Shown here: positions 8,036 through 64,000 of the stretch, one piece after another
How the letters are laid out: every line of letters begins with the position of its first letter
Position numbering within the stretch: position 1 is the stretch's first letter
NCBI GenBank assembly: GCA_025655595.1
Contig: JAHXIO010000003.1
Coordinates: forward strand, 62,001-126,000
Direction: 5' to 3'
Length of the DNA: 64,000 nt
DNA from: Candidatus Thiodiazotropha sp. (ex Monitilora ramsayi)
Lineage (GTDB): Bacteria; Pseudomonadota; Gammaproteobacteria; Chromatiales; Chromatiaceae
Notes under the pieces: generated by a model
Told to the model about the DNA's origin: nothing
Database searches by the model: none
What the model saw: the letters and a program-made list of their open reading frames with translations, nothing else
Translations under genes and position numbers: made by a program

Positions 8036-8431
8036 ATGAAAACGTACCACGGAAGCTGCCATTGTGGCCGAATCACATTTTCAATCACAACCAGCATAGA
8101 CAAAGTTGTTGAGTGCAACTGCTCTATATGCTCAAAAAAAGGAACGTTACATCACAGGGTGGCGCCAGAACAGTTCAGTTTGCTTGAAGTAACTGAATCC
8201 TTGTCTCTATATCAATTCGACACAAAAGAGGCAAAACACTATTTTTGCAAAGAGTGCGGCATCCACCCTTTTAGCAATCCGCGAGCAGAGCCAAATATGT
8301 ACAGCATCAACGTAAGATGCCTAGACGACTTTAATCTTGAAAAGGAAGAATATGAAACGGTCAAGTTTGACGGTCGTAATTGGGAAGAAGCAGTAGCAAA
8401 ACTTAATGAGCAATTAAGCTCTAACAAATAG
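8036..8431 (+). CDS. GFA-family (CENP-V/Mss4-like fold) zinc protein, integron cassette 6
   Basis: A 131-residue member of the GFA family, named after glutathione-dependent formaldehyde-activating enzyme; for most members the substrate is unknown. The zinc ligands are visible: GSCHCG at residues 7-12, ECNCSICSKKG near 30-40 and CKECGIHPF near 71-79. The fold is the Mss4-like beta sandwich. GFA proteins are frequent cargo of environmental integron cassettes. The R'' box GCTCTAAC (8418-8425) lies in the last codons and exactly complements the left core GTTAGAGC at 8018, which confirms cassette nature. A complete right half of the final attC is not found. Confidence 0.85.
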   Translation: MKTYHGSCHCGRITFSITTSIDKVVECNCSICSKKGTLHHRVAPEQFSLLEVTESLSLYQFDTKEAKHYFCKECGIHPFSNPRAEPNMYSINVRCLDDFNLEKEEYETVKFDGRNWEEAVAKLNEQLSSNK

Positions 8432-9339
8432 CTTCCCTACTGCTAGTTGGTCCAAAGAAGTGATCGGTGTCAATTCATAATCTTCTGCATTATTAATTGT
8501 CAACGTACCCAATACACTACCCCATCTCCACCTATTTAACTTTCACCCAAAAAACAAAAACCATGGCATGATTTCAGGAGCTGTCAAGGCAAATGGTTGA
8601 CCCGGAGAGGGGTTTTCGGAACCTCACGACGCTTTTTCGGAAACTGACGACACAAATAATGAAACACATGACAGTTTTTCGCGAATTCACGACAATGTTT
8701 TTCGAACTGTTGGGATTATTTCGCTCGTTGATGAGCCAAAAATGCTCCGTGATTGAATAAATTACAGTCAATCTCGAGCGAAATCGCTTCGTGAGTTGAT
8801 TTATTTTTGTCGTGAATTCGCAAAATAATTCAAAGCAGTTGAACAAAAGGCTTCGTGAGTTCGATTATTTCCTCCGACAGGTCAGTTATTCGTGCCGAGC
8901 AGTCTATTATTCGAGGGGTTGGCTACCCGATGAGGGTCACCGGTTATGTTCATAACCTGGCCAGCGGGGACTATCTGCCAGGCTTGAGCCGGTTCAGCCT
9001 CCGTTTCGGAGGACTTTCGGCCGCCGTTATTTCTGAAGCTGCTGCCCATCATGGTATGTGATGGTGTACACGGAACGATATCAGACAGCTCATCACTCTA
9101 TGTGTTGACAAATAGACAATGGCACTTTATCAGATAATTGGATTGATAGGTCCAAAGTAGGTTGATAAGCACATACTATTCAATAAAGGTATTTTACGAT
9201 GTCAGAAAACCGATATATATTTACAAAATCAAATTATAGAAAACGAAAGCATCAATAGAATACAAAATAGTGAATCTATCCAGTCCAACAATGCTGGTTC
9301 GCTATGGCATGTCAGGTATATCCATGTTAGGCAATATGA
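8432..9339. other. Gene-poor region with short repeat cluster
   Basis: About 900 AT-rich bases at the end of the cassette array. Open frames here (for example 8574-8846 on the minus strand and 8855-9061 on the plus strand) show no family resemblance and no good ribosome binding site. The main content is the repeat cluster at 8610-8872. The stretch 9060-9340 shows nothing I can name. Confidence 0.5.
8610..8872. repeat. Cluster of short direct and inverted repeats
   Basis: Three related units on the plus strand share TTTTCG-nnAA-nnnACGAC: near 8613-8630, 8634-8651 and 8675-8694. Two further units carry CTTCGTGAGTT followed by an ATTATTT-like tail (near 8787 and 8850), and TTGTCGTGAATTCGC (near 8807) is the inverted form of GCGAATTCACGACA (near 8681). 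Spacing is irregular. This could be a multi-site operator, a folded RNA or the remains of a mobile element end. Confidence 0.55.
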
Positions 9340-10842: not shown

Positions 10843-12080
10843 TGATCCGCAAGCGTCTTGCGGTGCTGTTGTTGCTGGCGCCGTTCTCCGCCGCATTCGC
10901 AGAGCTGTGGGAGTTCGAATCGGCCGTGGATGTGACGGCAGCGTCTAACGGTGGCAAAGCTAATTTTTTTCACCATCTGGACTCCGCAGGGCGTCGTAAT
11001 ATCGCCACGAATTCCGATGGAGTTGCCATCACCTGGGAGGATGACAGGGATGGGACTCCCAGGATCTATCTGGCTTACAAAGGACTGGATGAGAGTGCAT
11101 TCAGTCGTGAGGTCCGGCTCAGTGGTGAAGGTGAGGCCTATGAGCCGACGATCATCGCTTTGGATAGATCGCGCTATGCCGTTGCCTGGGAGGAGAACGG
11201 GCATGTGATGACAAGATCGGTCAGCATCGATGGCAAGGTGGAGCTGGGGCAGGTTGTACAGCTCAGCGAAACGGCGGGAGCGCAGGCAAATCTGACACAG
11301 GGAAATCGGGTTGCCTATGCTCTGTGGTCCGAACGCGCCAGTCGTTATGGACGGATCAGGTATCGTCCCATGACGGTCGATGAGAGTGGGACATTTCAAC
11401 TTGGTGAAGGCTGCTACATCGATCCGATACCGCCAGCAGATGAACAACTCTATCCCACCGCCGCTGTTTCCGGTGATGAGCTGATCGTCGTCTGGGAGGA
11501 CCGCCGGCCAAAACACACCATCATCATGGCGGCTACGGGACAGAGTGGAAAGCCCTGCCAATTCAGCGAGCCACTACGTATCAGTGAGAAACCGGATGGC
11601 CGAGATCTGCCTTATGGCACCGGGCATGGGGTCTCCCGTGTTGCGCTTGGGACATTCGGTAAGGAGAAGGTATTCGCTGCCTGGGCCGATAAACGCAATT
11701 TTCGTGACGGCTACGACATCTGGGGCGCGGAGTACACGCCTGATGAAACGGGTTTCCGCACTAATGAAAAGGTGCAGGACGATTTCAGCGGACTCTCGAA
11801 GCAGCGCAATGCCACCGTGGATGGCCATGCCAACGGATTGCTGGTTGTGGCCTGGAGTGACGAGCGTGAGGGACATACTGACGTTATGCTGAGCTGGCGT
11901 GAGCAGGGTGAGTGGAGTGACGATTGGACCGTGTCTGTCGCCTCCGGTGCAGGACATCAGAACAACCCCACTATTGCTCTGGACGATGATGGCAATCTTC
12001 ATGTCGCCTGGGTCGAACGAAAGGCGATCGGTGGGACGACCCGTTTGAAATACGCCTTCGGTAAACTGCAAGGTGATTGA
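10842..12080 (+). CDS. Exported beta-propeller protein (sialidase-like repeats)
   Basis: A 412-residue secreted protein with signal peptide (RLAVLLLLAPFSAAFA). Repeated motifs such as ITWEDDRDGTPRIYLAY, VVWEDRRPKHTIIMA, AAWADKRNFRDGYDIWGA and VAWSDEREGHTDVML mark propeller blades of the BNR/sialidase-like superfamily. No catalytic Asp-Glu-Arg-Tyr set of true sialidases can be recognised, so a binding or scaffolding function is more likely. The start overlaps the thioredoxin stop (TAATG), suggesting that the two periplasmic proteins work together, for example that the thioredoxin acts on a cysteine of the propeller or of its client. There is an isolated CYIDP cysteine and a KPCQF cysteine. Confidence 0.75.
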   Translation: MIRKRLAVLLLLAPFSAAFAELWEFESAVDVTAASNGGKANFFHHLDSAGRRNIATNSDGVAITWEDDRDGTPRIYLAYKGLDESAFSREVRLSGEGEAYEPTIIALDRSRYAVAWEENGHVMTRSVSIDGKVELGQVVQLSETAGAQANLTQGNRVAYALWSERASRYGRIRYRPMTVDESGTFQLGEGCYIDPIPPADEQLYPTAAVSGDELIVVWEDRRPKHTIIMAATGQSGKPCQFSEPLRISEKPDGRDLPYGTGHGVSRVALGTFGKEKVFAAWADKRNFRDGYDIWGAEYTPDETGFRTNEKVQDDFSGLSKQRNATVDGHANGLLVVAWSDEREGHTDVMLSWREQGEWSDDWTVSVASGAGHQNNPTIALDDDGNLHVAWVERKAIGGTTRLKYAFGKLQGD

Positions 12081-54567: not shown

Positions 54568-54643
54568 GGGTCGTTAGCTCAGTCGGTAGAGCATCTGACT
54601 TTTAATCAGGTGGTCGCAGGTTCGATTCCTGCACGACCCACCA
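54568..54643 (+). tRNA. tRNA-Lys (anticodon TTT)
   Basis: A 76-base tRNA gene with encoded CCA. Acceptor arms GGGTCGT and ACGACCC, D-arm AGCTC-GAGC, anticodon loop CTTTTAA with TTT, T-arm CGCAGG-TTCGATT-CCTGC. It marks the border between the GC-rich core and the AT-rich island; tRNA-Lys 3' ends are common integration targets. Confidence 0.97.
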
Positions 54644-55935: not shown

Positions 55936-56265
55936 ATGAAAAAACAAATTATTTACACTATTTTAATCTTGTTATTGAGTTCTACAGCTGTGGCATGGGA
56001 CGGCGTAGTCTCAGGTACTGTATCAAAAATTCATGTTGCTCATGGTGCAAATTATGCATTTAGAGTTTATTTGGATGGGTCTCCTGAAATGTGTGGTAAT
56101 GGACATAACTGGGCCTATATCAATGAAGCAGATAGCAACTATCAGGTTTTTGTAAGTACGCTTTTATCAGCAAAAGCAATGAGTAGTGACATCACAATCT
56201 ATTCAAACAGGCAGAATGGAGATCCATCTGGTTATTGTAAGATTGGTTATGTCATTTTTAACTAG
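55936..56265 (+). CDS. Small secreted protein, paralogue 1
   Basis: A 109-residue protein with signal peptide (MKKQIIYTILILLLSSTAVA). The mature part is VVSGTVSKIHVAHGANYAFR, a cysteine (PEMCGNG), VFVSTLLSAKAMSSDITIYS, a second cysteine (SGYCKIGY) and a terminal strand. This pattern (strands, Cys, one helix ending in a SAK- or AAK-like motif, strand, Cys, strand) recurs in the next genes. AAGGAA precedes ATG 55936. I know no function; the layout would suit a small disulfide-bonded beta protein outside the cell. Confidence 0.8.
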   Translation: MKKQIIYTILILLLSSTAVAWDGVVSGTVSKIHVAHGANYAFRVYLDGSPEMCGNGHNWAYINEADSNYQVFVSTLLSAKAMSSDITIYSNRQNGDPSGYCKIGYVIFN

Positions 56266-56317
56266 ATGTGAAGTATGAAGTATAGATGCAATCTAAATAT
56301 ATAAATAACTATTGACT

Positions 56318-56679
56318 ATGCATATTATGAAAACTCACTATAAAAATCTTCTTTTATCATTTTCTCTATTTATATTCTCTGGATCATTGATAGCCACTAC
56401 ATTCACTGACCTATCAAAAATCTCCTTATAGGGGTATATAGTCTCAATAATATTGGTGTTCAACTCGAAAACCCAAATATATCAAACCCAATGAATTGTG
56501 AAAAAACGACGAGCGCTACAAAGTTGTATAAAATAATAGATAGTACCGATCATGGTAAGAATATGTATTCATTAGCATTGGCATATAAAGCATCTGGTGG
56601 CGATGTAAAATTAATAGTTAATGAGAATGATTGTAGCCCTGAAGGTTATGCAATTATTAATGGAATTGTAGGGCAATAA
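56318..56679 (+). pseudogene. Small secreted protein, paralogue 2, frameshifted
   Basis: From ATG 56318 a signal peptide (NLLLSFSLFIFSGSLIA) and FTDLSKIS are encoded, then TAG stops the frame at about 56433. The rest of the family pattern is in the next frame: GVYSLNNIGVQLENPNISNP, MNCEKT, NMYSLALAYKASGGDVKLIV, NDCSPEGYAIINGIVG. One additional base (for instance T in TCCTTATA) would restore a protein of about 120 residues. A downstream fragment starting at ATG 56491 has no signal peptide. Pseudogene or sequencing error. Confidence 0.7.
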
Positions 56680-57271
56680 GGATTACACACACTACTTTGT
56701 TATACGTAACTATCACTACGTTATAAAGCTGATAGATCAGTTAATATTAGCTTATTAGGTTTGATCTAAGCGCATTTTTTTGATTATATTTTTTACAATG
56801 GACATGCATTTGCATTTCGAAAAGAAATGATATAAAAATAAGTACAAACTCAGGAAACTGATAAGGAAGATTGACAGAATGGAAGCAATACAACAGTTAG
56901 ATCCAGATGAGGCGCTCCATCTCTCTATTCACCAGTTCACATATGTAGCCCAAGATTACGGACATGTAATTGAATTCTTGGTGTTACATTTAAAACAATA
57001 TCTTACAAGTTATTATTTTCCAAATCTGCTTAATGACTGCACGAGTGATCGTAGGATCTCTCGTGTGTTATTGAAATAGGTTAGTAATGCTCAGTCTCAA
57101 ATAGTAAAAAGAAATTTGTAGTTGCTAGGAGGTCTACATAAAAAAGTTGTAATAGCATTAGTCAGTTATACACCAGGTATTTCCTATCGGGTCTACTTAC
57201 TGTGTTGTGACACAAGTGGGCTCGTTTGATTGATGAATCCTTAAAAAGACACTAGTACCAAGGCTTATTGT
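56680..57271. other. Gap in the paralogue array
   Basis: About 590 AT-rich bases. It contains only a doubtful 66-codon frame at 56879-57079. There may be a decayed further paralogue, but I cannot recognise one. Confidence 0.4.
56879..57079 (+). CDS. Doubtful 66-residue ORF
   Basis: Starts with MEAIQQLDPDEALHLSIHQF and has no signal peptide, unlike its neighbours. AAGGAAG lies about 10 bases upstream. No family is recognised. It may be a real small protein or chance. Confidence 0.3.
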   Translation: MEAIQQLDPDEALHLSIHQFTYVAQDYGHVIEFLVLHLKQYLTSYYFPNLLNDCTSDRRISRVLLK

Positions 57272-57667
57272 ATGAAAAGAGTTATCCTAATATTGAATAC
57301 TATGTTTATTATTATGTCGTTTTCTATCGCAGCTGCATCTGAGTGTACTGTTAGCGGTGCAAAAGTGACAAAAGTACAGCAATATAAAGATGGTCATGTG
57401 TTCGTCTATTTTGACACTAATACAAATTGTGATTGTACTATTTCGAATAGATTAGCATTTAAAAACGAAACAACCGTTGTTAGTCAAACTATTGAAAGTA
57501 CAACCACTACAATTGAACAAAATAGAGAGAAGCTATTTATGAGTGCCGCATTAGCGGCAATGACATCTGGGAAAAACATTTCAGCAACTGGTGAAGATCG
57601 AGATAGTAATGGTAATTGCCCAATCCATGGCAATACTGCAGAGTTGAGTGGAATGACAATATACTAG
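57272..57667 (+). CDS. Small secreted protein, paralogue 3
   Basis: A 131-residue protein with signal peptide (MFIIMSFSIAAASE near 11-24). Mature part: KVTKVQQYKDGHVFVYFDTN, several cysteines (TNCDCTIS), a longer Thr-rich loop, the family helix EKLFMSAALAAMTSGKNISA, and NGNCPIHGNTAELSGMTIY. It is the longest member. Same strand and order as the others; the next starts 106 bases later. Confidence 0.75.
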   Translation: MKRVILILNTMFIIMSFSIAAASECTVSGAKVTKVQQYKDGHVFVYFDTNTNCDCTISNRLAFKNETTVVSQTIESTTTTIEQNREKLFMSAALAAMTSGKNISATGEDRDSNGNCPIHGNTAELSGMTIY

Positions 57668-57773
57668 TCATTAATTCTTTACTTGATGATATCCATTGAT
57701 ATTTGTCTGTGATAAATGAAGCGTAATATATATATGTGTGTGATCTGAAGTTTAATAGATTAAAAATTGCATT

Positions 57774-58100
57774 ATGAACAAATTCGTGTTTTTTGTACTT
57801 TTATTTTCGTCTCTATCTTGTTTGGCCGAATATACGGGAAATTACTCATCCAAAATAAAGTGGATGAAAATATATAACACAGATACGATCTATTTTCAGA
57901 TGGATACTATGCCAAGTGATCATCAGTGCACAAATGATTATTTTGTTTTGAAGTCATCGATAACAGACAAACAACGAGATAGGTATTATTCAATGTTGTT
58001 GACAGCAAGAACTACAGGAACAACATTAACCGTTGGGTACGATAAGATAAATCCAGATTGTTCAAATGACAGACCAGTCGTGCATGCTTTGACATACTGA
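57774..58100 (+). CDS. Small secreted protein, paralogue 4
   Basis: A 108-residue protein with signal peptide (MNKFVFFVLLFSSLSCLA; a cysteine at the cleavage zone could also allow lipidation). Mature part: SSKIKWMKIYNTDTIYFQMD, HQCTNDYFVL, helix DRYYSMLLTARTTGTTLTVG, NPDCSNDRPVVHALTY. It is most similar to paralogue 7 in the KWMKIYNTDTIYF segment. Confidence 0.75.
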   Translation: MNKFVFFVLLFSSLSCLAEYTGNYSSKIKWMKIYNTDTIYFQMDTMPSDHQCTNDYFVLKSSITDKQRDRYYSMLLTARTTGTTLTVGYDKINPDCSNDRPVVHALTY

Positions 58101-58143
58101 GAAGTTCGACTGAAATTATAAATGATTAATGCGGTAAATATAA

Positions 58144-58500
58144 ATGAATAAAATCTCACTAATTATTTTCATGGTGTGCTTAACAGTGTCTGTGAACTCT
58201 TATGCATTCACATATACATATGGGCAAGCAATTAATAGATTATATGTACAAGAAAATGGCTACGTTTCATTTGGCGTAAGTAATATGCCTACTGACACGT
58301 GTGACTTTTTTGGCTTTCACTTTACATTTGACACAAAAACAGATGCCGGTAAAAGTAAGTTATCATTGCTTTTGTCCGCAAAAATGTCGGATAAATCGAT
58401 ACAGATTTGGTATGACCCCTCAACAACTCCAGGTACTGACAACACAAATGGGTGTACTAATACTTCAGTAGCTACAGTAGTACACATAGGGGTAGAGTAG
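58144..58500 (+). CDS. Small secreted protein, paralogue 5
   Basis: A 118-residue protein with signal peptide (MNKISLIIFMVCLTVSVNSYA). Mature part: QAINRLYVQENGYVSFGVSN, DTCDFFGFHF, helix KSKLSLLLSAKMSDKSIQIW, NGCTNTSVATVVHIGVE. Starts 43 bases behind paralogue 4, so the two are probably co-transcribed. Confidence 0.75.
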   Translation: MNKISLIIFMVCLTVSVNSYAFTYTYGQAINRLYVQENGYVSFGVSNMPTDTCDFFGFHFTFDTKTDAGKSKLSLLLSAKMSDKSIQIWYDPSTTPGTDNTNGCTNTSVATVVHIGVE

Positions 58501-58694
58501 TGCCAATAAACAAATGATATGTTTCTTAAGTTTAATTTACAAAACTAATTTATCAGATAATAATCGGATTACATTAATATATGATTAACTATTTTATATA
58601 GAAGGACCTTTTAATCTTGCGGTACAGAGCAAATAAATCAAGTAAATTAATTTAGGAAGTATTGTAAGTAGTATTCTTTAAAGAGGAAGCTTGA

Positions 58695-59045
58695 GTGAGA
58701 ATGTTATTCAAAGTGATCTTGGGATTATCCGTTATATTACTGCCACAAGTATCATATTCAGGGTTTGTGCAATCAGACTGGGTAACAATAGATCAAGTCA
58801 GTATGGGTTATAATGTTAAACGCGTTAACTTAGTGTTTTATCCTTCAACTAATCCCATCCCTAATCCTAATAATTGCACTCCATCTAACGAAGCCGCTAT
58901 TGATGAAGAACAAGTTAATCAAGATCATCTATACACGCTTGCGTTGGCGGCATTTACATCAAAAAAAGAAGTTAAGTTAGTGATTTGTGATGACCGTTGC
59001 TCAAATAGTGGAAGAGTTAAAGTTATGTCAATACATGCAAAGTAA
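58695..59045 (+). CDS. Small secreted protein, paralogue 6
   Basis: A 116-residue protein with signal peptide (FKVILGLSVILLPQVSYS). Mature part: WVTIDQVSMGYNVKRVNLVF, NNCTPSNEAAIDEE, helix HLYTLALAAFTSKKEVKLVI, DDRCSNSGRVKVMSIHAK. GTG 58695 or ATG 58701 may start it, both behind AGAGGAAG. The helix segment matches paralogues 2 and 7 most closely. Confidence 0.75.
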   Translation: MRMLFKVILGLSVILLPQVSYSGFVQSDWVTIDQVSMGYNVKRVNLVFYPSTNPIPNPNNCTPSNEAAIDEEQVNQDHLYTLALAAFTSKKEVKLVICDDRCSNSGRVKVMSIHAK

Positions 59046-59133
59046 ATAATAAAAGTGGAATGTCTATAGATGTAAATGAACACATTGCGAATAAATTATA
59101 TAAATCTTTATTGTATGTATTTGGAAGGGTATT

Positions 59134-59472
59134 ATGAGACTTATAACAAATGGAAATGTTTTATTTGTCATATTGTTCTTGTTCAATGCAAGTGCACATG
59201 CATACACAGAATGTACTGTATCGCCGAATAAGGTGTGGTTGAATTTAACCGGCGATACCATATGGATATGCTTTTCTCAGGCAGCATGTATCTATAAAAG
59301 TTCTATAGATAATGGTATTACAGAACGGCATTTGAACTCCATGTATTCTGCAGGATTGTCAGCTGTTACTGCAAATAAAAGGCTGACCGTTAGGTACTCA
59401 CAAGATGACACGTGCGATACATTAACAGCCACCAGCACAAATGACATTATGGGATTTTGGTATTTACAATAG
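59134..59472 (+). CDS. Small secreted protein, paralogue 7
   Basis: A 112-residue protein with signal peptide (NVLFVILFLFNASAHA). Mature part: CTVSPNKVWLNLTGDTIWIC, AACIYKSS, helix HLNSMYSAGLSAVTANKRLT, VRYSQDDTCDTLTATSTNDI and a final WYLQ. Last member of the array, 219 bases before the YD-repeat gene. Confidence 0.75.
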   Translation: MRLITNGNVLFVILFLFNASAHAYTECTVSPNKVWLNLTGDTIWICFSQAACIYKSSIDNGITERHLNSMYSAGLSAVTANKRLTVRYSQDDTCDTLTATSTNDIMGFWYLQ

Positions 59473-59691: not shown

Positions 59692-62600
59692 ATGAATCGT
59701 GTATTATCGAATGTTGGTATCATTAACAATCGTCTGTTTTATCTTTTAGTTGTAATTCTGTTATCTATCAATTCAACATTAATATATTCAGTAGAACAGC
59801 CTGCTTCAGAACCATTGCTAGATCCAGGTGAAGTAATTAATTCAGGTACACAAGAAATAGAAACTGGAGAATATATAGATATTAGGACTGGAAATGTATA
59901 TTTGAGTGTGGCTGATATAAAAGTGCCTGGGAATGGGGGTATGGATATCGAGGTCCGAAGAGCATATAACAAAAATCCATTAACCAATTATTTGGCTCCA
60001 CATTCAATAGGGAATTGGGAAGTAGAGTTACCACGCATATTTGGCAATGCTGGTCTTAGTGATTATTGTGCTAATCCAAGAAGTAGGGTTTATGTGAGTT
60101 ATAAAACACTTGATCTGTTTGGATATGCAACGGCATATACGTCTCAAGAGTGGGCCTTTGATTACCCTTTCCCGCACGAACTGTATGCTAAGGATTGGAA
60201 TTATGGTAATCCATATATTGAGTTTTCTGAGCGTATTTATCCTAGCGACCCTCGTTGGGGAGAGATTGGCTGGATACCAATAGAGACAAGATACACACCG
60301 CGAGCTGAATACGTAACGCGTCCATACTATGGATTAAGCCTCAGCGTACCAGGAGAAGGTACAAAGCAACTTCTTGAGCCTGTTTCTAATACAGTATTTT
60401 CAAGTGCAAAATACGTTACAAACGATAACTGGAAGGTTAATTGTATTGCAAAAGATGGAGTTAATAATGCAGGATTCCAAGTAATATCACCAGATGGTAC
60501 AAAGTATACTTTTGATAAGAGCTTTACATATCAAACAACATCTAGAGAATCATGGAGGATCAATGATTTTAGATTACCAATAAAATCAGCAGATAATTTA
60601 CATAAACCAGTACACTATTATCCATCAAAAAAAGAAGACAAGTACGGGAATTATCTTTCATATGTTTACGTTAGAGATTCTTTAAATACATTGCATATTA
60701 AAACGATTACAAGTAGCGAAGGAGAAATTGTTACTTTTAATTATGAAAATACCCCTTCAGGTTCATACTTACTCGATAACATCGAAGTTAATGGTAATGT
60801 ATGGGATTATGTTTTTAGCGGAAACTACCTTGATAAGGTTATTTTGCCAGATAGCACGGCTTGGGAATATACTTACCAAGGTAATCACCTTGAAGATAAT
60901 AAATACCAAATATCAACAATAAAGAATCCATTGGGTGGAGAAATAACATATCAGTTTACGAAAATGCGCGCTGATTTCTTTGGTGGAAGAGAAAACAGCG
61001 AACAAATCTATGTGTTAAGTAGTAAAACAATCAGTGGTAGTAATGTTAAGACAGGAAAAATATCATATTTTTATGATAAAGATTCATATGGTAACAATAG
61101 AACAAAAATTGCGTCATATGCAGGGTTAAGAGAATACGTATATCACAATCCTAACGATTGGAAAATGGGAGCATTGTTATCAACGAAGACAAGTGATACT
61201 GATCAGGATCTTTCGCTAATAAATAGTTATACAGAAATAGATAGTACTAGACTCAAGGAAATAGAATCTACAAGCTATACATGGACATCGATTTTGCAAG
61301 TTGGTGATTCATATTCAAGATTTATTAATGCATCAAATAACTATAAAAGAGCATTAAGTAGTAAAACTGTAAATCGTGATGGAACTGATTATGTCACGAC
61401 GTACCTCAATTATGATGATTTTGGAAGCCCGTCGAGAGTTGAGGAGACATCTGGTGGTAAATCAAGATATACGGAATACACATACTACAACAATACCAGT
61501 AACTGGATATTAGGCATATTGGATGATGAAACTATCACTGGAATCGGCACTATTAATCGCACTCTCGATCCTGTAAATGGAAATGTGCTGTCTAAATCTA
61601 CATTCGGTACTGTTGAAGGGTTTACCTATCACGATACTGGTGATTTACATGAATACACTGATCAGAATGGAGTAAAAACTCAGTATGAAGAGTATAAGAG
61701 AGGAAAACCTAGGACTATAAATAAATCTATTAACAAAAAAGGTACGCATACTGTTACACAAGTCATTACTGATAATGGAGAAATAGAGTCAGTAACCATT
61801 GCTGGAAAAACGACATCTTATGAGTACAGTGGTACAGGAAAGATAACAAAAATAACAAAACCAAAAATATCAACTGATCCAATTATTATCGATTACCTCA
61901 TGCTGCCAACTGGATATACGCAGACAATCGATAGGGGTACTTACAATAAAACAATAACATATGACGGTTTTGGTCGAGCTGTATCTGTAGATGAAGAGGG
62001 TATTGTAACGCAGTCAGAATATGATAAATCAGGGAGGCTGAGTAAAAAGTTTCTGCCTAACTCCTCTGAAGCAGAAGAATATATTTATGATGCTTTGGAT
62101 AGAATATTTAAAGCATACCCACCAACGTCACATATCGACCATACCTTATATAAATATCTTGTAGACAATAAAACTGAAATCACTGATACAAATGGAAAAG
62201 TCAAGACTCTATCTTACCAGTCATATGGCGATCCAAACGAGCAACATCTCATAACGATAGATGCGGAAGAAGGCGTTAGTTTGTCTATCGAACGTGATCT
62301 GTTAGGAAAAATTAAGAGCGTTACGCAAGGTACCTTTAAGAGAGAGTATCACTATGATTTACGTCAGATGCTGGACTATACGATCAATCCGGAATCTGGA
62401 ATGACGGATTATGATTTTGATGATGCTGGTAACATGGTATCTAAACATCAGCTTAATTATCCATTTATCTGGTATGTATACGATGGAATGAACAGATTGG
62501 ATTTTATCAATCATCCTGCAGGCACTGATGATATTGATTATGAATACTATGAAGATGGGTTATTGAAAACGGTAGCGAAGGGCTCTACAGAATGGTTTTA

Positions 62601-63867
62601 TGACTATGACGATAATAGTAATTTAGAACTTGAACAGTTTGATACAGATATCAATGACCCAAACAATACGTTTTACTTTTTCCATAGAACGTACAATAAC
62701 AATGATCATCTAGTAGACATAACTTATCCCAGTGGATTAGTCGTTAACTACAATCCTAATGATCTGGGTCAGCCAGAAACGGTCACTCCATATATTTCTG
62801 ATGTAGACTACTTTCCAAATGGCCAAGTGGATAAAATTCGCTTTGCTAACGGCGTAATTACAGATTACACGCAAGACTCAACTCAGCGTTTAAAAGATAT
62901 AAATGTCAATTCACCGCATATGTTGTTGTTGGCGAGCAATACGTACTTATACGATTATCAAAATAACGTAAAGAACATATTTGATAATCGAAATTCGTTA
63001 AATAATTATTCATTCCTTTATGATGGGGTTGAAAGGCTTTCTCATGTAAACGGAAGTCAAGTGCTAACATATGAGCCTAACGGAAATATTAAAACTAAAA
63101 ATATCGGAGGACGAAACTTAACATATCAGTATGATTCAACAACTAATCTGCTAACTGATGTAACTGACAGCGGACAGGGATTCTATTCGGTTTCACATGA
63201 TCCAAAGGGCAATATGACGTCTAATGGTACGGATAACTTTACATACAACGATATAAATCAGTTGATAACGGTTCCAAGTAAGGGAATTCAATACAATTAT
63301 GATGGAAATGGAAATCGCTACGATATTCAGTCGACAGAGCATGTTCATTCCGTTTACTCAACCAACGGACACCTTTTGCATGAAAATAATTTAAACACAG
63401 GAAAAATCACAGAGTATTTTTACTTGGGAGATCAACTCATAGCCAAGAATCAGGAGTGTGTTGAGTCCGATCTTGATGGTGATGGTCTAATAGACTGTAT
63501 TGAAGACCGTTATGGATTAAATCTAAATGATTCTACTGATGCCGTATTAGATTTAGATGGAGATGGCCTATCAAATATACAAGAAATATCATTAGGATTA
63601 AATCCAAAAAATAGTGATACAGACGTAGATAACATACCCGATGAGTATGAAGTTAGATATGGACTGGATGCGAAAGTAGACGATTCAGATCTTGATATCG
63701 ATAATGATGGTTTGTCAAATTATGAAGAATATATTCATAACACTAATCCAAACCTGGCAGATACGGATGGCGATGGAATGTCAGATGGCGAGGAAATAGC
63801 AGCAGGATCAAATCCAAACTTCAATGTGGCGGTAATGGTGGCAATTAACTACCTTATCCTTAATTGA
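59692..63867 (+). CDS. Exported YD-repeat (RHS) protein with TSP3-like tail and no RHS core
   Basis: A 1391-residue protein. N-terminal signal peptide (FYLLVVILLSINSTLIYS, about residues 17-34), then the opening typical of secreted RHS proteins (YIDIRTGNVYLSVADIKVPG, RRAYNK). From about 600 to 1240 there are many YD repeats, for example YDGFGRAVSVDEEG, YDKSGRLSKKFLP, YDALDRIFKAYPP and YDGMNRLDFINHP, which form a beta-cocoon in relatives. The repeats end with ITEYFYLGDQLIAKNQ, where the RHS core YHTDxLGSP is normally next. Instead residues from about 1258 are calcium-type TSP3 repeats (DLDGDGLIDC, DLDGDGLSN, DTDGDGMSDGEE). No toxin domain is attached. AAAGGAAA precedes the ATG. The gene following it carries the missing core motif. 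Confidence 0.9.
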   Translation: MNRVLSNVGIINNRLFYLLVVILLSINSTLIYSVEQPASEPLLDPGEVINSGTQEIETGEYIDIRTGNVYLSVADIKVPGNGGMDIEVRRAYNKNPLTNYLAPHSIGNWEVELPRIFGNAGLSDYCANPRSRVYVSYKTLDLFGYATAYTSQEWAFDYPFPHELYAKDWNYGNPYIEFSERIYPSDPRWGEIGWIPIETRYTPRAEYVTRPYYGLSLSVPGEGTKQLLEPVSNTVFSSAKYVTNDNWKVNCIAKDGVNNAGFQVISPDGTKYTFDKSFTYQTTSRESWRINDFRLPIKSADNLHKPVHYYPSKKEDKYGNYLSYVYVRDSLNTLHIKTITSSEGEIVTFNYENTPSGSYLLDNIEVNGNVWDYVFSGNYLDKVILPDSTAWEYTYQGNHLEDNKYQISTIKNPLGGEITYQFTKMRADFFGGRENSEQIYVLSSKTISGSNVKTGKISYFYDKDSYGNNRTKIASYAGLREYVYHNPNDWKMGALLSTKTSDTDQDLSLINSYTEIDSTRLKEIESTSYTWTSILQVGDSYSRFINASNNYKRALSSKTVNRDGTDYVTTYLNYDDFGSPSRVEETSGGKSRYTEYTYYNNTSNWILGILDDETITGIGTINRTLDPVNGNVLSKSTFGTVEGFTYHDTGDLHEYTDQNGVKTQYEEYKRGKPRTINKSINKKGTHTVTQVITDNGEIESVTIAGKTTSYEYSGTGKITKITKPKISTDPIIIDYLMLPTGYTQTIDRGTYNKTITYDGFGRAVSVDEEGIVTQSEYDKSGRLSKKFLPNSSEAEEYIYDALDRIFKAYPPTSHIDHTLYKYLVDNKTEITDTNGKVKTLSYQSYGDPNEQHLITIDAEEGVSLSIERDLLGKIKSVTQGTFKREYHYDLRQMLDYTINPESGMTDYDFDDAGNMVSKHQLNYPFIWYVYDGMNRLDFINHPAGTDDIDYEYYEDGLLKTVAKGSTEWFYDYDDNSNLELEQFDTDINDPNNTFYFFHRTYNNNDHLVDITYPSGLVVNYNPNDLGQPETVTPYISDVDYFPNGQVDKIRFANGVITDYTQDSTQRLKDINVNSPHMLLLASNTYLYDYQNNVKNIFDNRNSLNNYSFLYDGVERLSHVNGSQVLTYEPNGNIKTKNIGGRNLTYQYDSTTNLLTDVTDSGQGFYSVSHDPKGNMTSNGTDNFTYNDINQLITVPSKGIQYNYDGNGNRYDIQSTEHVHSVYSTNGHLLHENNLNTGKITEYFYLGDQLIAKNQECVESDLDGDGLIDCIEDRYGLNLNDSTDAVLDLDGDGLSNIQEISLGLNPKNSDTDVDNIPDEYEVRYGLDAKVDDSDLDIDNDGLSNYEEYIHNTNPNLADTDGDGMSDGEEIAAGSNPNFNVAVMVAINYLILN

Positions 63868-63884
63868 TTACAAGGAAATATACT

Positions 63885-64000
63885 ATGAATCAATCTATAC
63901 ACAAGTATTTATACGGATTGGTATGGCTGTTGCTAATCGTTTCCACAAACATCCATGCTCAATCACTGGTAACCTACTACCATACAGATGTTTTGGGCTC
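63885..64000 (+). CDS. Exported RHS-core protein, 5' part (runs off the window)
   Basis: The first 38 codons are present. A signal peptide (YGLVWLLLIVSTNIHA) is followed after four residues by VTYYHTDVLG, the beginning of the RHS-associated core motif (YxHxDxLGSP) that is missing from the gene before. AAGGAAA lies 7 bases upstream, and the gap to the previous stop is 17 bases, so both genes are in one operon. In other RHS proteins this core is followed by a variable C-terminal toxin domain; what follows here is outside the window. Confidence 0.8.
   Translation, partial: MNQSIHKYLYGLVWLLLIVSTNIHAQSLVTYYHTDVLG

What the first reader, a model, noticed from the sequence alone, without database searches (positions are those of the whole stretch)
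59692..64000. RHS protein split exactly between the last YD repeat and the core, with both parts exported separately
In known RHS proteins the YD-repeat shell, the core motif (YHTDxLGSP) and the variable toxin end are one chain. Here the first gene ends its repeats at YFYLGDQLIAK and then carries a calcium-type TSP3 tail; the next gene, 17 bases later, opens with its own signal peptide and at once YYHTDVLG. The break lies exactly at the usual junction, and each side has gained a functional end (tail or signal). This looks like a two-component exported RHS device rather than random breakage. The two chains may assemble outside the inner membrane.
Basis: partly seen in the sequence, partly recalled or inferred. 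Interest (0 to 1): 0.8.

Follow-up and report, generated by a model that had tools for sequence, protein, structure and literature searches.

The report
Two-gene split RHS toxin device
A large bacterial toxin container that is normally one protein is here made as two separately exported proteins, an open shell and a lid carrying the toxin, and the same split recurs in other bacteria, so it looks like a working device rather than a broken gene.

Summary
Gene 1 (59692-63867) is a predicted exported RHS shell with a TSP3 tail. Gene 2 (from 63885, to 64844 on the contig) has its own signal peptide, then at once the RHS core with both autoprotease aspartates, a colicin-D-type toxin end, and an immunity gene one base downstream. 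A second Candidatus Thiodiazotropha genome has the same stop, gap and start, with shell and core under purifying selection: neither assembly error nor decay. I found 28 non-redundant shell/signal-core pairs with the break at the same linker, mostly in Gamma- and Betaproteobacteria, four with a 4-base stop/start overlap. Six loci carry tandem signal-core-toxin genes with similar cores and different toxins. Most likely two Sec-exported chains rebuild one cocoon: gene 1 the open barrel, gene 2 the lid, protease and cargo (assembly inferred, not shown). It differs from TcB/TcC, the known two-chain RHS shell, in where the break lies and in both chains being exported. Unexpectedly, some gene 1 tails end in a hydrophobic C-terminal peptide shared with unrelated secreted proteins (phospholipase-, subtilase-, astacin-like), usually beside small secreted proteins faintly like AB5-toxin B subunits. 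That suggests a docking peptide.

The parts
59692..63867 (+). Gene 1: predicted Sec-exported RHS/YD-repeat shell without core, 1391 aa
   Evidence: dN/dS 0.13 against the Candidatus Thiodiazotropha homologue in L042
59692..59790 (+). Predicted signal peptide of gene 1 (end approximate)
   Evidence: Sequence rule only; no SignalP
63454..63864 (+). Tail of gene 1 after the last YD repeat: bacterial TSP3 repeats
   Evidence: TSP3_bac 4.3e-17; tail of 137 aa by shell HMM; dN/dS of the last 139 codons 0.089
63826..63864 (+). Hydrophobic C-terminal peptide VAVMVAINYLILN, proposed docking motif
   Evidence: Shared by gene 1 tails and the PLA2-like neighbour; rare elsewhere
63868..63884 (+). 17-base gap with Shine-Dalgarno-like AAGG before gene 2
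   Evidence: same length and same stop and start in L042
63885..64000 (+). Gene 2, cut by the window end (continues to 64844): signal peptide, RHS core with aspartyl-autoprotease motif, Colicin_D toxin end
   Evidence: homologues
63885..63959 (+). Predicted signal peptide of gene 2 (ends IHA)
   Evidence: in 8 of 9 aligned relatives the signal peptide ends at the core
55936..56265 (+). Small secreted paralogue (A4 family)
57272..57667 (+). Small secreted paralogue (A4 family)
57774..58100 (+). Small secreted paralogue (A4 family)
58144..58500 (+). Small secreted paralogue (A4 family)
58695..59045 (+). Small secreted paralogue (A4 family)
59134..59472 (+). Small secreted paralogue (A4 family), next to gene 1

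Best explanation
This is a split, fully exported RHS polymorphic toxin. Gene 1 is the open YD-repeat barrel; its C-terminus leaves the barrel at the last repeat and is free, and may carry an adaptor tail. Gene 2 is a separate chain holding the last ~105 residues of the shell, which in the solved one-chain protein RhsA form the aspartyl-autoprotease end cap, plus the toxin cargo. Both chains are predicted to go through Sec, so the colicin-D-type toxin (a cytoplasmic tRNase in colicin D, recalled) leaves the producer before it could fold there, and the immunity protein guards the cytoplasm. In the periplasm or outside, the core of gene 2 completes the barrel, closes it with the toxin inside, and cuts the toxin free as in one-chain RHS proteins. 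The split would let one shell take several alternative lid-plus-toxin chains and gives the shell a free C-terminus for docking. Shown: gene anatomy, conservation, selection, co-inheritance, tandem lids. Inferred: export, assembly, self-cleavage, route across the outer membrane and antibacterial target.
For: Same break in 28 non-redundant pairs; gap 11-79 bases in 22, -4 in four, -11 and 486 in one each. Of 50 relatives' ORFs holding shell and core in one frame with the shell model matched to its end, 44 join them by 4-14 residues, where the split falls. Gene 2 aligns to positions ~778-894 of the 909-position teneurin shell profile, below that model's cut-off, and to the core of RhsA-type, TccC3, YenC2, Tse5 and teneurin chains. 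Two aspartates in register with the autoprotease motif in 30 of 30 gene 2s; in RhsA these two cut the toxin free and that domain seals the cocoon (PMC8765631, passages). dN/dS 0.13 for gene 1 and 0.11 for gene 2 signal+core against a sister genome; stop, 17-base gap and ATG conserved. Shell and core distances correlate, r 0.735, p 1e-4, 27 pairs. Tandem lids in six loci, signal+core 76-100% identical, toxin ends 18-52%. Two GspD matches over cut-off in the genome.
Against: 17 of 80 scanned loci had a signal-core gene with no shell called next to it; some of these lie near a contig end, have a long upstream ORF that the shell model did not call, or are doubtful signal calls (L085), but some lids may act alone or be remnants. 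Shell distances also correlate with toxin-end distances (r 0.32, p 2e-4), so part of the co-inheritance is shared ancestry, and only 11 of 27 pairs have the same nearest neighbour by shell and core. Fused forms sit among split ones in the tree. dS of gene 1 is near saturation (1.7-2.1), so its ratio is rough; whole gene 2 gives 0.36 and its 27-codon signal 0.34. Four of 24 gene 1s with a complete 5' end failed the signal rule, and the pairs were required to pass it for gene 2.
Confidence: 0.7

Rival explanations
1. Assembly error or a frameshift in one ordinary RHS gene.
For: The two ORFs are in different frames and close together.
Against: An independent genome has the same stop, 17-base gap and ATG with no length change; gene 2 opens with a signal peptide, and signal peptides of unlike sequence sit at the same place in other genera.
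Confidence: 0.01
2. Displaced toxin tips: gene 2 is a silent cassette kept for recombination, as with E. coli rhs orphans, and gene 1 is a decayed shell.
For: Tandem copies with swapped toxin ends exist; in Acidovorax radicis (L065) the extra copies bring a piece of shell end along. Repeat-bearing orphan tips also occur in the scan (L088, L110, L115).
Against: The orphan tips seen in the scan begin inside the repeat without a signal peptide; these genes begin with start codon and signal peptide exactly at the core. Gene 1 and gene 2 signal+core show dN/dS 0.09-0.13. Four pairs overlap stop and start by 4 bases.
Confidence: 0.12
3. Two independent secreted proteins that do not form one cocoon: gene 1 an adhesin-like shell, gene 2 a small secreted toxin using the core only as a self-cleaving carrier.
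For: Some signal-core genes have no shell called next to them (17 of 80 loci).
Against: Gene 2 matches the last part of the shell in solved RHS chains; shell and core are co-inherited; in 10 of 28 pairs gene 1 ends within 11 residues of the last repeat, at the linker.
Confidence: 0.15

Closest known systems
TcB-TcC cocoon of ABC (Tc) toxins
   Same: RHS shell made of two chains; one B chain can take C chains from several genes, including the orphan yenC3 (PMC11067744, passages); the C chain holds core, aspartyl protease and toxin (PMC8765631, passages).
   Different: In YenC2 and RHS2 the core lies at 588-689 and 579-692 of the chain, so ~580 residues precede it; here essentially none do. Both chains here carry predicted signal peptides, which Tc B and C lack (recalled).
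One-chain RHS effectors (RhsA, Tse5, Tre23) and WapA-type Sec-exported RHS
   Same: YD shell, core with two aspartates, variable C-terminal toxin, immunity gene.
   Different: One chain; a short linker where the split lies here. T6SS forms have PAAR and no signal peptide (recalled).
Bacterial teneurin-like proteins (PMC13018210, abstract, outline and passages)
   Same: Exported YD shell with polymorphic toxin and immunity gene.
   Different: One chain with FN-plug and NHL domains; no split gene pair in the passages seen.
E. coli-type rhs orphan tips (recalled)
   Same: Swappable core-toxin-immunity modules in tandem.
   Different: Tips of this sort seen in the scan carry a repeat piece and no signal peptide.

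Membership tests
RHS polymorphic toxins | YD/RHS repeats | tested here: met
   RHS_repeat 1.9e-12 in gene 1
RHS polymorphic toxins | RHS-associated core before a variable toxin end | tested here: met
   Rhs_assc_core 8.2e-24, Colicin_D 4.2e-28 in gene 2
RHS polymorphic toxins | Adjacent immunity gene | tested here: met
   Colicin_immun 3.4e-17
RHS polymorphic toxins | Repeats, core and toxin in one chain | tested here: not met
   Two ORFs; 28 pairs
RHS polymorphic toxins | C-terminal self-cleavage by the aspartyl dyad | not testable with these tools
   Aspartates present in 30 of 30 gene 2s; activity not tested
TcB-TcC (ABC toxins) | Two chains form the shell | tested here: inconclusive
   Suggested by gene anatomy; no complex tested
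TcB-TcC (ABC toxins) | C chain contributes several hundred shell residues | tested here: not met
   Core starts right after the signal peptide
TcB-TcC (ABC toxins) | TcA partner gene | not tested
   No TcA search was run; nothing like it was noticed by eye in the ORF lists
AB5-type toxins (small flanking proteins as B subunits) | Recognisable B-subunit sequence | tested here: inconclusive
   Best PDB profile matches are Shiga-type B (E 0.0093 and 0.017) and ArtB (0.13), under usual significance and over part of the length for Shiga-type B
AB5-type toxins (small flanking proteins as B subunits) | Pentamer binding a C-terminal peptide of the A chain | not testable with these tools
   Only the association of motif and small genes was tested

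The most novel reading that the evidence does not exclude
The tailed split RHS shells, and unrelated secreted proteins (PLA2-like, subtilase, astacin, cohesin/PKD/TSP3 adaptors), form a new class of modular secreted assemblies. Each ends in a hydrophobic C-terminal peptide (about xxP[IA]IxxLLLN) that docks into oligomers of the small secreted OB-fold-like proteins encoded next to it, as A2 peptides do in AB5 toxins. Tailed RHS shells kept the split because it frees a C-terminus on the shell for this docking while the other chain brings lid and toxin: an RHS cocoon carried on AB5-like binding rings.
Probability: 0.3. Interest if true: 0.9.

Novelty: new variant of a known kind. Interest (0 to 1): 0.72.

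Why it matters
If true, the RHS cocoon can be cut at its lid and exported in two parts, so one shell could be loaded with different toxins after export. That suggests how large Sec-exported RHS toxins are made safely and diversified, and gives a natural two-part container. The C-terminal peptide and its association with small secreted proteins point to an unrecognised way in which secreted toxins and enzymes may be assembled or targeted.

Tried and rejected
Assembly error or frameshift: rejected. TSP3 inserted first inside a one-chain RHS: none of the linkers printed (those under 80 residues) reads like TSP3, by eye; five longer ones were not read; 45 of 67 ORFs with both parts, and 44 of the 50 with the shell model matched to its end, have 4-14 residues. 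Single origin of the split: the quick tree needs 11 changes between split and fused, at least 4 forced by starred branches, against 21.9 for shuffled labels, so the label is clustered but one origin is not supported; the Peregrinibacteria pair (L120) sits apart. T6SS delivery: T6SS-like ORFs lie on the same contig (L003, named by eye), but gene 1 has a predicted signal peptide and no PAAR match; not pursued. Genomic island at tRNA-Lys (54568-54643): no exact copy of a 22-base piece of its 3' end in the 151 loci then held. DUF5992 as name of the small proteins: 5 of 46 members match, best 4.9e-4, while the Pfam model itself rang in none of 274 genomes and no control, so left open. Structure prediction: switched off, so no fold search was run. 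Literature: the listings and the passages seen describe no such split; the only 'split' in PMC3482391 concerns dividing manuscripts. Subscription journals and preprints are not held. No paper holds DUF5992.

Limits of the counts: the 80-locus scan used a query that included signal peptides, so 24 strict pairs and 17 signal-core genes without a called shell are not a prevalence. A rough lower bound from the class search: 369 genomes, 133 with a core match; of the 30 loci returned, the own one plus 10 others show a signal-core gene, 4 of them with a called shell. Pairs in L034, L041, L128, L134 and two partial L065 modules were dropped as duplicates or fragments before the count of 28. The motif rule was loosened; far ORFs were scored with the same rule. 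and each used another, earlier or simpler, motif rule.
Full report
What is there. The window lies on G000:C5:62001-126000. Its nearest relative, G184, is listed as of the same genus, and G184's contig has the length and gene content of a Candidatus Thiodiazotropha (ex Myrtea) contig, a lucinid clam symbiont (L042). Gene 1, 59692-63867, is a 1391-aa protein with predicted signal peptide, YD repeats and a TSP3 tail. Gene 2 starts 17 bases later and continues beyond the window to 64844: signal peptide, RHS domain, Rhs core, Colicin_D end. A colicin-type immunity gene starts one base after its stop.

Not breakage. The homologous locus in L042 keeps the stop, the 17-base gap and the ATG. dN/dS by a counting method is 0.131 for gene 1 (dS near saturation), 0.089 for its last 139 codons and 0.114 for codons 1-140 of gene 2; whole gene 2 gives 0.363, its toxin ends being unlike. 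The L042 toxin end has no Pfam match at E 0.01, as expected for a polymorphic toxin.

The split recurs. A family search of gene 2 in 194 genomes matched 80. The best nine matches beside the window's own are frames of 209-394 aa, eight of them matching from query residue 14 or earlier, that is into the signal peptide. With flanks, eight of the nine follow a same-strand gene with YD repeats or, at contig ends or where the shell was not called, a tail-like end; the ninth is a second lid in tandem. The genome-contig scan returned 80 loci. By shell and core profiles 24 of these hold a strict pair and 17 more a signal-core gene without a called shell next to it. With other loci, and duplicates dropped, there are 28 pairs, in Pseudomonas, Acidovorax, Verminephrobacter, Methylovorus, Pseudoduganella, Ferrimonas, Shewanella, Marinobacter, Catenovulum, Kangiellaceae and others, and one in a Peregrinibacteria bin. 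In G184 a second pair exists, not among the 28, with a 1417-aa upstream frame holding 12 YD-like motifs. G212, a one-contig genome, has a pair (L126).

Where the break lies. In relatives with shell and core in one frame, 44 of 50 with the shell model matched to its end have 4-14 residues between last repeat and core. In 10 of 28 pairs gene 1 stops within 11 residues of the last repeat; in 18 it has a tail of 90 residues or more. Tails include TSP3, PKD, fibronectin-like and hexapeptide-like sequences (by eye). Gene 2 corresponds to positions ~778-894 of the 909-position teneurin shell profile and to the stretch before the cargo in RhsA-type, TccC3 and YenC2 chains. In RhsA that domain is an aspartyl autoprotease that seals one end of the cocoon and frees the toxin (PMC8765631, passages). 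Two aspartates in register are present in 30 of 30 gene 2s; here D106 and D133.

Co-inheritance and cassettes. Shell and core distances correlate in 27 pairs (r 0.735, p 1e-4); shell and toxin-end distances do so less (r 0.32, p 2e-4), and nearest neighbours agree in 11 of 27. In six loci two or three signal-core-toxin genes stand in tandem; signal+core is 76-100% identical and toxin ends 18-52%. In five of the six no shell piece was called between them; in L065 shell-end pieces were. Of 21 gene 2s scanned, three have a named toxin end (Colicin_D, Ntox47, HNH) and 18 have none.

History. A quick tree of shell plus core for 27 split and 44 fused rows needs 11 changes, at least 4 forced by starred branches, against 21.9 for shuffled labels. 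The split is clustered yet mixed with fused forms; repeated splitting or refusion is implied if the tree holds.

The tail motif. By the rule, 8 of 18 gene 1s with a tail of 50 or more residues end in a hydrophobic peptide such as VPILQMLLD, IPILHLLLH or VAINYLILN, 0 of 10 tail-less ones do, and 4 of 1393 other ORFs do: two PLA2-like neighbours (window's genome and G184) and two that read as gene 1-type tails. With the later, looser rule, 11 of 1177 ORFs match, every one a gene 1 or PLA2 end; two of the eleven are second copies of the same gene 1. The PLA2-like gene is L002:7188-8000 (PLA2G12 2.1e-9).

The small proteins. About a dozen secreted proteins of ~110 aa flank the pair, with two conserved cysteines and SxLLxAxxxGKxV. 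In the genus they occur in 3 of 22 genomes: 14 copies in the window's genome (13 on its C5), 18 in G184, 1 in G566. Among the 28 pairs, small genes lie in the fetched stretch of 6 of 9 loci whose gene 1 ends in the motif (a simple rule) and 0 of 19 others (Fisher 2e-4); three motif loci had none (L067, L082, L125), and L002 and L042 are close kin. In 34 stretches around small genes (mostly from the class search, which matched 29 of 369 genomes), 7 of 58 ORFs on the same strand within 1.5 kb end in the motif and 0 of 282 others do (Fisher 3e-6; rule loosened). The seven lie in six stretches of five genomes and have different domains: Big_9 plus TSP3, two cohesin-like (one also TSP3), subtilase, PKD, astacin plus PKD, DUF6973. 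Most small genes have no motif-bearing neighbour. Three of the 34 stretches hold a one-chain RHS gene, and in two of those (L194, L201) a motif-bearing adaptor stands near.

Reading of the motif. A profile of the small proteins finds, among solved chains, chiefly Shiga-type B subunits (E 0.0093 with 16 members, 0.017 with 46) and ArtB (0.13); these are below usual significance. A C-terminal peptide of the A chain held in the B ring is how AB5 toxins assemble (recalled). This fits, but a secretion or sorting signal is an equal reading of the motif, and neither explains the tail-less split pairs.

Mechanism. Best reading: two Sec substrates rebuild one cocoon outside the cytoplasm, gene 2 being lid, protease and cargo. 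Shown are anatomy, conservation, selection and tandem lids. Not shown are export, the complex, cleavage, the way across the outer membrane (two GspD matches over cut-off exist) and the target.

Known or new. It is an RHS polymorphic toxin by parts but not by the one-chain rule, and not a TcB/TcC pair, because the break lies ~580 residues further on and both chains are predicted to be exported. No description was found in the searches named in Tried and rejected. New variant of a known kind.

Noticed in passing
window 55936-59472; L002 6513-10758: Array of about a dozen ~110-aa secreted paralogues on both sides of the RHS pair, faintly like AB5 B subunits and associated with a C-terminal hydrophobic motif in neighbours.
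   Followed up: yes
L002 7188-8000 (window 66187-66999); G184 copy L034 16095-16907: Secreted phospholipase A2-like protein ending TLVPILAMLLH/N, the same kind of C-terminal motif as gene 1 tails.
   Followed up: partly
L002 6147-6968, 9363-9434, 10338-10861: Repeats with GGGGACGGAGGGAATTAAAAATGGTCAGC-like sequence, six copies in one family, with an ORF at 10864-11556 that reads like a REP-associated transposase and a similar stretch near 8100-8475; transposase named by eye.
   Followed up: partly
window 54568-54643: tRNA-Lys upstream of the stretch that holds the small genes and the RHS pair; possible island boundary.
   Followed up: partly
L085: Shewanella sp. locus with six core-bearing ORFs, at least three of them with the same non-repeat stretch before the core, perhaps a further head on the second chain.
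   Followed up: no
L054 7599-8885: Gene 2 with an Ig-like domain (N_BRCA1_IG 2.1e-6) between signal peptide and core: extra domains can sit on either side of the split.
   Followed up: no
L070 3178-7914: Gene 1 whose tail ends in a hydrophobic stretch plus arginines, like a GlyGly-CTERM sorting end (by eye), a hint of type II secretion.
   Followed up: no
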